From the NCBI RefSeq assembly GCF_016860525.1, contig NZ_BNEA01000015.1:4390001-4454000 (forward strand): DNA of 64,000 nt, written 5' to 3'. The position numbers and the translations under genes are program-made. Source of the DNA: Streptomyces rubradiris. GTDB taxonomy: Bacteria; Actinomycetota; Actinomycetes; Streptomycetales; Streptomycetaceae. The notes below the pieces were generated by a model, which was not told where the DNA came from, did no database searches, and saw only the letters and a list, made by a program, of their open reading frames with translations. Positions 53,691 through 58,288 of this stretch are shown in pieces (position 1 is the first letter of the stretch; each line of letters opens with the position of its first letter).

Positions 53691-54446
53691 GTGAGCAGCA
53701 ATGGGCAGGAAAGCACCGTCATCAATCCCCTGGAGCAGGGCGCACTGCGCCGCATGGCGCATCACTACCACCGGTACGGCATCGTCACTGTCACCGATCT
53801 GATTCGGGAAGACGTCCGCAAAAACGTGCGGGCGGAGGCGGACCGGCTGCTGGAGAAATACGCCGAGCGGCGTGATCTCCGCCTCCAGACCACCGGATAC
53901 ACCCGCCGCTCCATGTCCGTGGTGCAGAGCGAGACGATCGCGGGCAACAGCGAACTGGTCACCTCGATCTACGCGAATCCGGAACTGCTCGGCGCGCTGG
54001 AGCGCATAGCCGGCGAGAAACTGCATCCCTGCCCCAAGGCCGACGAGGAATTCCTCATCACCCGGCAGGAACGGAGCGGGGACACGCACGGCTGGCACTG
54101 GGGTGATTTCAGCTTCGCCCTCATCTGGGTGCTCCAGGCCCCGCCCATCGACATCGGCGGCATGCTCCAGTGCGTACCGCACACGGAGTGGGACAAGTCC
54201 GATCCGCGGATCCACCAGTATCTCGTGGACAATCCGATCCACACGTACCACTTCGAGTCGGGCGACGTGTATTTCCTGCGCACCGACACCACGCTCCACC
54301 GCACGGTTCCGCTGCGCGAGGACACCACCCGCATCATCCTGAACATGACCTGGGCGGGCGACCGCGACCTGCGGCGCGAGCTGCAGGGCGACGACCGCTG
54401 GTGGGAGGACGCCGATGTTTCGGCGGCCGCCGCCCTGGACGACTGA
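53691..54446 (+). CDS. besD: BesD-family Fe(II)/2-oxoglutarate radical amino acid halogenase
   Basis: A 251-residue enzyme. The metal triad is reduced to His-x-Gly: H136-W-G138 and H203, so chloride can take the place of the usual Asp/Glu, the mark of halogenases. Further residues match those I recall as substrate-binding in BesD of S. cattleya with a shift of one: R73, H133, D139, N218, T220 and the pair W237-W238; E119/E120 also fit. These bind a free amino acid, lysine in BesD. The GTG start has GGGAGA 7 nt upstream. First gene of a besD-besC-besB order. The exact substrate (lysine, ornithine or other) is not decided by sequence. Confidence 0.85.
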   Translation: MSSNGQESTVINPLEQGALRRMAHHYHRYGIVTVTDLIREDVRKNVRAEADRLLEKYAERRDLRLQTTGYTRRSMSVVQSETIAGNSELVTSIYANPELLGALERIAGEKLHPCPKADEEFLITRQERSGDTHGWHWGDFSFALIWVLQAPPIDIGGMLQCVPHTEWDKSDPRIHQYLVDNPIHTYHFESGDVYFLRTDTTLHRTVPLREDTTRIILNMTWAGDRDLRRELQGDDRWWEDADVSAAAALDD

Positions 54447-54524
54447 CCGGCCACCGCGCCCGCGGCCCGGCAAGGGCCTGACGCAGAGCTCTTCCCCCGC
54501 TTTCCCCCGCGACGAGGGATCACC

Positions 54525-55292
54525 ATGACCGATCTGAACACCCCGGAAACCAAGCCGCTGTCGGACCACTTCGACCACGTGGAGCCGGGAATCCGCCGGC
54601 GGATCGCCGTACAGGACCCGGAGATCAAGGACTATCTGGACGGCGTGCTCGCGAAAATCGCCTCCCACCGCGGCGTCGAGCACCCGTACCTGAACGCCTA
54701 CCGCACCACGGCGCTCACCCCCGAGCAGGAGCGCCTGATGTACAGCGAGTGCTATTACTTCTTCCGCTACCTCCCGTTCTACATCACGGGAATGGCGGTC
54801 AAGACACGGGACGAGATGATCCTCCGGGAGATCATCCTGAACGTCGCCGACGAGGTCGGCAGCGATCCCACGCACTCCACGCTCTTCGCCGGCTTCCTCG
54901 CCCGGCTCGGCATCGACAAGGAGCACCTCGACGCCTACGAGCCGCTGGAGGTCACCAAGCGGCTCAACGACGGCATCCGGGTGCTGTACACCGAGTCGCC
55001 GATCCACAAGGCCCTCGGCGCGCTGTACGCCGACGAGACCATGTCGTCCATCATGGTCTCGAAGATCAACGACGGGCTGCGCAACCAGGGGTACGACGAC
55101 GACCTGCGCCACTTCTGGCAGTTGCACATCGACGTCGAGGTGGGGCACAGCAACTCCGTCTTCAACGCCATCGCGCCCTACGTCCACTCGCCCGCCACCC
55201 GCGCCGAGTTCGAGGCGGGCGCCTACGAGTTCCTCGGGCTGGTGGAGGACTACTGGGACGGCGTGCAGCGGCTCGTGGGCCTCGACGCATGA
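54525..55292 (+). CDS. besC: BesC-like heme-oxygenase-like diiron oxygenase
   Basis: A 255-residue all-helical HDO-superfamily enzyme. Candidate iron ligands follow the spacing of CADD and SznF: E110, H117, E171, H201, E205 and H208 (H-x3-E-x2-H near the end). In BesC this oxygenase cleaves 4-chlorolysine to 4-chloroallylglycine, ammonia and formaldehyde. The residue corresponding to the late Asp in other members is Glu205 here. Start ATG follows GAGGG. The stop overlaps the start of the PLP gene (ATGA). Confidence 0.82.
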   Translation: MTDLNTPETKPLSDHFDHVEPGIRRRIAVQDPEIKDYLDGVLAKIASHRGVEHPYLNAYRTTALTPEQERLMYSECYYFFRYLPFYITGMAVKTRDEMILREIILNVADEVGSDPTHSTLFAGFLARLGIDKEHLDAYEPLEVTKRLNDGIRVLYTESPIHKALGALYADETMSSIMVSKINDGLRNQGYDDDLRHFWQLHIDVEVGHSNSVFNAIAPYVHSPATRAEFEAGAYEFLGLVEDYWDGVQRLVGLDA

Positions 55293-56854: not shown

Positions 56855-56889
56855 GGTGCGGGTCCCCGGCCGTCCCGGGGACCCGCACC
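56855..56889. terminator. Bidirectional terminator between the PLP and ATP-grasp genes
   Basis: A perfect 15-bp inverted repeat (GGTGCGGGTCCCCGG and complement) with a 5-nt loop lies between the convergent genes. Confidence 0.85.
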
Positions 56890-56893
56890 GCCG

Positions 56894-58288
56894 TCATCCG
56901 GCGGCGGGCCGCAGCAGCGCCGCCCGGGCGGCCTCGGTGTAGCGCTCGGCCGCCCCGAACGTCGGCGCCAGCGCGGTCAGTTCCACGAAGCCGCAGGTCT
57001 TCAGCGCGCCCAGGACGTGCAGCGCGACGCCCTCGCCCCGGTCCCGGCGGTAGAGCAGGTCCTCGGCGCGCAGCCGCGCCACCGCGGTCCGCGGGTCGAG
57101 CCGGCCCAGCGCCTCGGGGTCGAGGATGCGCCCGTGGACGTAGCACATGGCCTGCCCGTCCGGGCGGCGCAGCCGTCCGTCGGCGCCGACGTCCCGGCCG
57201 ACCAGGGCCTCGGCGTAGCGCAGCACATGGCTGGGGCCGACCTTGCGCAGGTTGATCTCCACGGCGAGCGGTCCGCGGTCCCCGGCGATCACGAAGTCCA
57301 CGCCGAAGCTGCCCCGGTGGCCGAGCGAGGCGAGCACCGCGCCGGTGCGGGCCACCGCGTCCGTGATGGCGGGCCGCCACCGCTCCTCGGCCGGGTACCG
57401 GCAGCCCCAGTACTGCCCCCCGGAGAGCACCTGGTCGTGGCACGCGAGCACCTTCACCGTGCCGTCGGCGGTGACGTACCCCTGGCCGCTGGGGGAGGAG
57501 GTGACCCCCTCCAGGAACTCCTCCACGATCACGCCCTCGTCGGCCAGCTCCCGGTGGAACTCCTCGGCGGACATCCGCAGGACCTCGGCCGAGCCGAGCA
57601 GGTCACCGGTGCGGGCGTACTTCTCGCAGTCGATCAGCACATTGCCGACCGAGGCCGCCCAGGTGCTCGCGCTGACCTTCACCAGCACGTGCCGGGGCCG
57701 GTCCGGGCCGCCGGCCAGCCGGCGGATCGCGGCGGCCACCTCCGCCTCGCCGCGCAGCGCCTCGGCCCCGCCGCCGGGCACCGGCACTCCGGCCCGCAGC
57801 AGGATCTCCTTGCTGCCCGCCTTGCTGCCCCAGCGCGCGGCCAGCGAGGCGTGCCCCTCGTCCAGGTCGGCCCCGATCCGGCGGGCCAGCTCGTCCAGCG
57901 CCTCGGACGCCATGAAGTGCACGATCCCGGCCCGCGCGGTCTTGCCGACGGCGTCCCGCAGCGTGGCCACGAGGCCGTCGTCACCGAGGACCAGGTCGTC
58001 CAGCGGGCGCGCCCGGCGGACGCCGGGGGTGAGCAGGGTCAGCCGGTCGCGCACGCTTTCGATCATTCGGTCGTCAAAACCGAAAACGTCCCGGAAATGA
58101 TATTCGAGGGTGTAGGGATCGACGGGTTCGGAGGTGACGACGACCGCCCTTTCGTCCGGGTCGCGAAGGCTCCACAGAAAACCCAGGCTCCGCTCGGCGG
58201 AGTAACGCAGATACGGCACCTCTTCCAGCATGCGATCGGCGTAGTTGAGCGCGTAGATCAGGATCTGCGTGTAACCGGAATCTGCCAT
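56894..58288 (-). CDS. ATP-grasp peptide ligase (PGM1-like)
   Basis: A 464-residue ligase. A pre-ATP-grasp region (1-150) is followed by the ATP-grasp fold with HVLVKVSAS (near 200), VIVEEFLEG (near 250) and metal-binding AVEINLRKVGPSH (near 345-357). The C-terminal domain has the G-V-A-L-H-V-L-G-A-L-K-x3-F-V-E-L-T segment typical of PGM1-type peptide ligases, which join a carboxylate to an amino group via acyl phosphate. It converges on the halogenase trio and probably couples its amino acid to a partner, though the partner is unknown. An AT-richer promoter region lies at 58365-58400. Confidence 0.78.
   Translation of the reverse strand: MADSGYTQILIYALNYADRMLEEVPYLRYSAERSLGFLWSLRDPDERAVVVTSEPVDPYTLEYHFRDVFGFDDRMIESVRDRLTLLTPGVRRARPLDDLVLGDDGLVATLRDAVGKTARAGIVHFMASEALDELARRIGADLDEGHASLAARWGSKAGSKEILLRAGVPVPGGGAEALRGEAEVAAAIRRLAGGPDRPRHVLVKVSASTWAASVGNVLIDCEKYARTGDLLGSAEVLRMSAEEFHRELADEGVIVEEFLEGVTSSPSGQGYVTADGTVKVLACHDQVLSGGQYWGCRYPAEERWRPAITDAVARTGAVLASLGHRGSFGVDFVIAGDRGPLAVEINLRKVGPSHVLRYAEALVGRDVGADGRLRRPDGQAMCYVHGRILDPEALGRLDPRTAVARLRAEDLLYRRDRGEGVALHVLGALKTCGFVELTALAPTFGAAERYTEAARAALLRPAAG

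What the first reader, a model, noticed from the sequence alone, without database searches (positions are those of the whole stretch)
53691..58288. Halogenase-diiron-PLP cluster predicted to make a terminal-alkyne amino acid, with a new ligase partner
The sequence shows a radical halogenase, a heme-oxygenase-like diiron enzyme and a cystathionine gamma-synthase-like PLP enzyme in one coupled row. This is the besD-besC-besB set that makes propargylglycine from lysine via 4-chlorolysine and 4-chloroallylglycine in S. cattleya. The hydroxylase of the ethynylserine route is not seen in this window, and a PGM1-like ATP-grasp gene is present instead. Inference: the end product is propargylglycine or a peptide of it rather than beta-ethynylserine.
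Basis: partly seen in the sequence, partly recalled or inferred. Interest (0 to 1): 0.88.

Follow-up and report, generated by a model that had tools for sequence, protein, structure and literature searches.

The report
Propargylglycine gene cluster lacking hydroxylase
A soil bacterium carries a compact copy of a known four-gene pathway that turns lysine into the alkyne-bearing amino acid propargylglycine and probably caps it with glutamate; the supposedly new ligase is the already known last gene of that pathway, and only the final hydroxylase is missing.

Summary
besD (53691-54446 +), besC (54525-55292 +) and besB (55289-56833 +) face besA (56894-58288 -). All four proteins pass the NCBIfam equivalog cut-offs for BesD, BesC, BesB and BesA, and their best PDB matches are the four Bes enzymes. 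The order besD-besC-besB facing besA occurs in 8 of 8 loci compared. The hydroxylase BesE is missing from the window and gave no match at E<=0.001 in the 9.05-Mb genome; it adjoins bes in 3 of the 8 loci. In four genomes the cluster lies between the same two genes; one relative without bes has these directly adjacent, marking a 5,143-bp insertion. Most likely product: gamma-glutamyl-propargylglycine and/or free propargylglycine (inferred; no chemistry here). It is a new member of a known kind. Side lead: an AlaX-like tRNA-editing gene occurs in 3 of 3 BesE-containing records and 0 of 4 BesE-less bes genomes searched.

The parts
53691..54446 (+). besD, Fe(II)/2-oxoglutarate L-lysine 4-chlorinase (251 aa, GTG start)
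   Evidence: NCBIfam NF042920 472.9 bits (cut-off 450); PDB 6nie E 2e-130; H136-x-G138 and H203 plus R73, E119, H133, D139, D235, W237 identical in 8 of 8 loci
54525..55292 (+). besC, haem-oxygenase-like diiron 4-chloro-allylglycine synthase (255 aa)
   Evidence: NCBIfam NF042919 524.6 bits (cut-off 500); PDB 7twa E 2.5e-149
55289..56833 (+). besB, PLP-dependent propargylglycine synthase (514 aa), start overlaps the besC stop
   Evidence: NCBIfam NF042918 889.4 bits (cut-off 800); PDB 9aua (BesB) 1042.8 bits; Lys325 in SLTKYATG invariant in 8 loci
56853..56891 (.). 17-bp-stem hairpin between the convergent besB and besA, probable two-way terminator
   Evidence: folds at -43.4 kcal/mol, z -4.25, 0 of 200 shuffles as stable; its role is inference
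56894..58288 (-). besA, ATP-grasp L-propargylglycine--L-glutamate ligase (464 aa), PGM1-like C-terminal domain
   Evidence: NCBIfam NF042917 883.9 bits (cut-off 750); PDB 8yi6 E 2.6e-198; Pfam PGM1_C, PreAtp-grasp, ATP-grasp_3
53260..58402 (.). 5,143-bp stretch holding the four bes genes, absent from the same gene junction in a relative
   Evidence: L031: homology stops at window 53259 and resumes at 58403 with 3 bases between; L036: 45 bases between; L037: about 525 bases between
51904..53259 (+). left flanking gene (451 aa, no Pfam family), not taken as part of the pathway
   Evidence: flanks bes in window, L001, L002 and L006; near DUF1416 without bes in L031, L036, L037
58472..58759 (-). 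right flanking core gene (DUF1416), not taken as part of the pathway
   Evidence: Pfam PF07210; found in 41 of 41 related genomes

Best explanation
This is an orthologous, BesE-less bes cluster. BesD chlorinates free L-lysine at C4. BesC fragments 4-chlorolysine to 4-chloro-allylglycine. BesB eliminates chloride to give L-propargylglycine. BesA joins it to glutamate as gamma-glutamyl-propargylglycine. Without BesE the route stops there, so the end product is the dipeptide and/or free propargylglycine, not beta-ethynylserine. Shown here: gene identity, order, conserved active-site residues, no BesE match in the whole genome, and the insertion site. Inferred: that the genes are expressed, each catalytic step in this organism, and the end product.
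For: All four proteins are above equivalog cut-offs and match the four solved Bes enzymes best. They are 93-98% identical to the S. achromogenes and S. eurythermus proteins and 67-86% to those of S. cattleya. In one variable stretch, compared by eye, the solved BesB (9aua) reads like the S. achromogenes protein. HxG site and lysine pocket are conserved in 8 of 8 loci; the residues contacting lysine come from passages of PMC13244439, the loss of a carboxylate iron ligand relative to hydroxylases from a passage of the abstract of PMC10187165. The BesD, BesC and BesB steps come from passages of PMC10187165 and PMC8407142; the BesA and BesE reactions from database names. No BesE in G000 at E<=0.001, while the same model finds it at 1.1e-193, 1.6e-188 and 5.5e-159 in three bes records, which however supplied the model; best single-sequence hit in G000 E 0.589. 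The AlaX-like gene found with BesE is also absent.
Against: No expression or chemistry data. An unrelated hydroxylase elsewhere could take BesE's place. The two immediate neighbours are no exporter or resistance gene that I could recognise, though the left one has no family; an EamA homologue 63% identical to the one beside S. cattleya besA exists elsewhere in the genome (G000 C1:60641). The founding pathway paper (Marchand et al. 2019, recalled) was not seen, so its data on BesA and BesE were not checked. BesE itself was identified by position, fold family and a few NCBI names only.
Confidence: 0.82

Rival explanations
1. The strain still makes beta-ethynylserine, with a non-homologous or strongly diverged hydroxylase encoded elsewhere in the genome acting on gamma-Glu-propargylglycine.
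For: The four upstream genes are intact. The BesE search had 67 first-look candidates in G000, though none reached E 0.001.
Against: No BesE relative at E<=0.001, best single-sequence hit E 0.589; the AlaX-like gene found in 3 of 3 BesE-containing records is missing.
Confidence: 0.08
2. The ATP-grasp enzyme is a genuinely new ligase, coupling propargylglycine to something other than glutamate and giving a new alkyne peptide.
For: 68% identity to S. cattleya BesA leaves room for a shift in specificity; BesA relatives reach down to 31% identity among the 54 proteins found.
Against: 883.9 bits against a BesA equivalog cut-off of 750; best PDB match is L-propargylglycine--L-glutamate ligase at E 2.6e-198; the gene faces besB in 8 of 8 loci, including S. 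cattleya.
Confidence: 0.07
3. The cluster is an inherited but silent or decaying remnant.
For: The immediate neighbours show no pathway regulator, exporter or resistance gene.
Against: All four frames are open, with no inside stops reported for BesA, BesC or BesB in G000. Active-site residues of BesD are kept. The same four genes are kept at the same site in four genomes.
Confidence: 0.1

Closest known systems
bes cluster of Streptomyces (Streptantibioticus) cattleya, pSCATT (beta-ethynylserine)
   Same: besD-besC-besB facing besA, same order; BesD 76%, BesC 86%, BesB 67%, BesA 68% identical
   Different: S. cattleya also has besE upstream and an EamA-type exporter beyond besA, on a megaplasmid; here both are missing from the locus and the cluster sits on a 5.8-Mb contig between core genes
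bes clusters of S. eurythermus and S. achromogenes
   Same: Same four genes, same insertion site, 93-98% protein identity
   Different: No difference in gene content seen; S. eurythermus has one extra ORF between the left gene and besD. BesE was sought in the whole S. eurythermus genome (not found) but only in a 20.8-kb stretch of S. achromogenes
bes clusters of S. triculaminicus and S. griseocarneus
   Same: Same four-gene core
   Different: They add besE, a nitroreductase-family gene, an EamA exporter and an AlaX-like tRNA-editing gene, at another genomic site

Membership tests
bes (terminal-alkyne amino acid) pathway | BesD L-lysine 4-chlorinase | tested here: met
   NF042920 over cut-off; 6nie E 2e-130
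bes (terminal-alkyne amino acid) pathway | Halogenase-type iron site (Gly in place of the carboxylate ligand) | tested here: met
   H136-W-G138; 120 of the 120 listed homologues (554 found) also read WHWGD. No tree against characterised hydroxylases was built
bes (terminal-alkyne amino acid) pathway | BesC 4-chloro-allylglycine synthase | tested here: met
   NF042919 over cut-off
bes (terminal-alkyne amino acid) pathway | BesB alkyne-forming PLP enzyme | tested here: met
   NF042918 over cut-off; 9aua match
bes (terminal-alkyne amino acid) pathway | BesA L-propargylglycine--L-glutamate ligase | tested here: met
   NF042917 over cut-off; 8yi6 E 2.6e-198
beta-ethynylserine pathway (full) | BesE hydroxylase of gamma-Glu-propargylglycine | tested here: not met
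   No match in the whole genome at E<=0.001; best single-sequence hit E 0.589
bes (terminal-alkyne amino acid) pathway | Production of propargylglycine or its dipeptide | not testable with these tools
   needs culture or enzyme chemistry
PGM1 (pheganomycin-type) peptide ligase | PGM1_C domain on an ATP-grasp ligase | tested here: met
   PF18105 49 bits, but the specific family within it is BesA

The most novel reading that the evidence does not exclude
There are two kinds of bes lineage. One makes the threonine mimic beta-ethynylserine and carries BesE together with an AlaX-like tRNA deacylase that strips beta-ethynylserine from tRNA as self-protection. The other, including this window, has lost or never had both, has moved as a bare four-gene cassette into a core chromosomal junction, and releases gamma-Glu-propargylglycine as a glutamate-masked inhibitor of PLP enzymes (that propargylglycine inhibits such enzymes is recalled).
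Probability: 0.35. Interest if true: 0.5.

Novelty: new member of a known kind. Interest (0 to 1): 0.33.

Why it matters
It gives a natural minimal lysine-to-alkyne gene set that should stop at propargylglycine or its gamma-glutamyl dipeptide, which suits biosynthesis of clickable amino acids. It also gives a clean contrast for asking what BesE and its companion genes are for. The enzymes themselves are already known, and public records already label close relatives such as the S. eurythermus BesA (98% identical) by that name.

Tried and rejected
Rejected: 'new ligase replacing the hydroxylase', since the ligase is BesA. Rejected: the halogenase being a hydroxylase (HxG; BesD equivalog). Bit scores alone would not separate the two. 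Rejected: the S. cattleya AlaX-like gene being the fluorothreonyl-tRNA deacylase FthB. A passage of PMC11295145 calls FthB ProXp-ST1-related; around the gene (pSCATT 598000-616000) I read only the first residues of 20 ORFs and ran no family search, so the neighbourhood is not characterised. Led nowhere: searches of the held library for the Bes enzymes, ethynylserine, propargylglycine biosynthesis and terminal-alkyne amino acids gave short mentions only; PMC12123629 mentions besABCDE in its full text, but not in the part held. Marchand et al. 2019 (recalled) was not seen. By megablast the bes stretch matches only the two S. cattleya records among plasmids, and BesD has no match in phage records.

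Full report
Check of the observation. Reading frames give besD 53691-54446, besC 54525-55292, besB 55289-56833 (all +) and besA 56894-58288 (-). The first three are spaced as one transcription unit, with besC and besB overlapping (ATGA); the fourth is convergent, separated by a strong hairpin.

Identity. Each protein scores above the curated NCBIfam equivalog cut-off for the matching Bes enzyme: BesD 472.9/450, BesC 524.6/500, BesB 889.4/800, BesA 883.9/750. The best PDB matches are 6nie (BesD), 7twa (4-chloro-allylglycine synthase), 9aua (BesB) and 8yi6 (L-propargylglycine--L-glutamate ligase). Identities to the S. cattleya proteins are 76, 86, 67 and 68%, and to S. achromogenes 98, 97, 93 and 96% (BesD, BesC, BesB, BesA). 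In one variable stretch, compared by eye, the solved BesB reads like the S. achromogenes protein, so it seems to come from the lineage of this window. Residues that PMC13244439 (passages) reports around lysine in BesD are all kept here; I shifted its numbering by three, inferred from the chain numbering. The HxG motif and second histidine are kept in 8 of 8 loci; their role as iron site is recalled. Scores alone do not separate halogenases from hydroxylases: the solved HalB and HalD score 229 and 204 bits, the two lysine hydroxylases 223.

The ligase. It is BesA: equivalog and best PDB match agree, and it sits in the same place in all 8 loci compared: window, S. eurythermus, S. achromogenes, S. 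triculaminicus, S. griseocarneus, S. catenulae, Streptomyces sp. NRRL S-31 and S. cattleya. In S. catenulae besB was seen by tblastn, because my ORF picker chose an overlapping frame.

The missing hydroxylase. In S. cattleya a divergent 2OG-oxygenase-like gene precedes besD. Four of the 93 homologues found bear the NCBI name 'L-gamma-glutamyl-L-propargylglycine hydroxylase BesE'; many others are named proline hydroxylase or WelO5-family halogenase. I take the gene as BesE, without a passing NCBIfam model. It adjoins bes in 3 of 8 loci (S. cattleya, S. triculaminicus, S. griseocarneus). A search of 7 genomes or records gave strong matches in those 3 (E<=5.5e-159; they supplied the model). There were also weaker matches to other proteins (E 4.6e-20 to 5.5e-8), including one each in S. 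catenulae and NRRL S-31, and none in the window's genome or S. eurythermus. S. achromogenes was not held and not searched. A single-sequence search to E 10 gave E 0.589 in the window's genome. Three of 199 genus genomes have a BesE relative at E<=1e-60 although none of the three is among those with BesC over the cut-off, so BesE homology alone does not prove function.

Phylogeny. On a BesD+BesA tree of 10 rows the window groups with S. eurythermus and S. achromogenes (100/99), then NRRL S-31 (100/100). BesE presence needs 2 changes over the 9 rows labelled. S. achromogenes was counted as lacking BesE from its 20.8-kb locus alone; Actinomadura sp. KC06 was counted as having it because its three proteins share name and contig length; Frankia was not counted. 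Deep branches are poorly supported (72/67), so loss in this lineage is plausible but not proven.

Location. In the window, L001, L002 and L006 the cluster lies between a 451-aa gene and DUF1416/rhodanese genes. DUF1416 was found in 41 of 41 genomes; 30 loci were fetched, one of them the window's own. Within these roughly 3.3-kb loci the left gene was seen in 3 of the 29 others (L031, L036, L037). In L031 homology breaks at window 53259 and resumes at 58403 with 3 bases between; in L036 45 bases and in L037 about 525 bases lie between. The other 26 did not show the left gene at E 1e-4, so the junction varies. The edges were not searched for mobile-element signatures.

Rarity. Over-cut-off matches: BesC 3 of 392 genus genomes (13 with any match at E<=0.001), BesA 4 of 392 (55 with any match; one of the 4 at a contig end), BesB 4 of 394 family genomes (all 394 with some match, as expected of a common PLP family). 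The window's own genome is one of the over-cut-off matches in each.

Side lead. In S. triculaminicus and S. griseocarneus besA is followed by an EamA exporter and an AlaX-like tRNA-editing gene; the AlaX-like call is below the NCBIfam cut-off (about 70 of 300 bits). The protein has a 62% relative on the S. cattleya megaplasmid about 75 kb from bes. The four BesE-less bes genomes searched show only distant hits (E 1.4e-6 to 2.6e-4), all in open frames of 892-1026 aa, long enough for alanyl-tRNA synthetases (inference). In 199 genus genomes 4 have a relative at E<=1e-30, with 41-44% identity. Since beta-ethynylserine is a threonine analogue that enters proteins (PMC10250548, passages), a tRNA-cleaning role is a reasonable hypothesis. 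The exporter does not track so cleanly: a 63-64% relative exists elsewhere in the window's genome, S. eurythermus and NRRL S-31.

Conclusion. This is a genuine bes cluster of the four-gene, BesE-less kind. Product inferred: gamma-glutamyl-propargylglycine and/or propargylglycine.

Noticed in passing
L003:15230-15937 and L004:15061-15798; pSCATT (NC_017585.1) 607002-607664: AlaX-like tRNA-editing gene occurs in 3 of 3 BesE-containing bes records (beside the cluster in two, about 75 kb away in S. cattleya) and in 0 of 4 BesE-less bes genomes searched; possible beta-ethynylserine-tRNA deacylase.
   Followed up: partly
G000 C1:60641-61507 (outside the window): EamA exporter 63% identical to the one beside S. 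cattleya besA lies elsewhere in the genome, with 63-64% relatives in S. eurythermus and NRRL S-31; possible exporter for the product.
   Followed up: no
53323-53372: Three GGCATATG motifs 21 bp apart between the left gene and besD; 2 copies in S. achromogenes, 1 in S. eurythermus, 0 in NRRL S-31.
   Followed up: partly
49774-50631 (-): GlnR-type nitrogen regulator gene (Pfam GlnR_1st) lies 3 kb left of besD; a relative sits near bes in L001 and L006 as well.
   Followed up: no
L001:8173-8820: S. eurythermus has an extra ORF between the left gene and besD, so the insertion edge is variable.
   Followed up: no
PDB 6nie against PMC10187165: That preprint names BesD's source as S. lavenduligriseus (passage), while the 6nie sequence reads by eye like the S. 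cattleya gene in L021; a UniRef entry 'BesD, lysine halogenase' is also labelled S. cattleyicolor.
   Followed up: no
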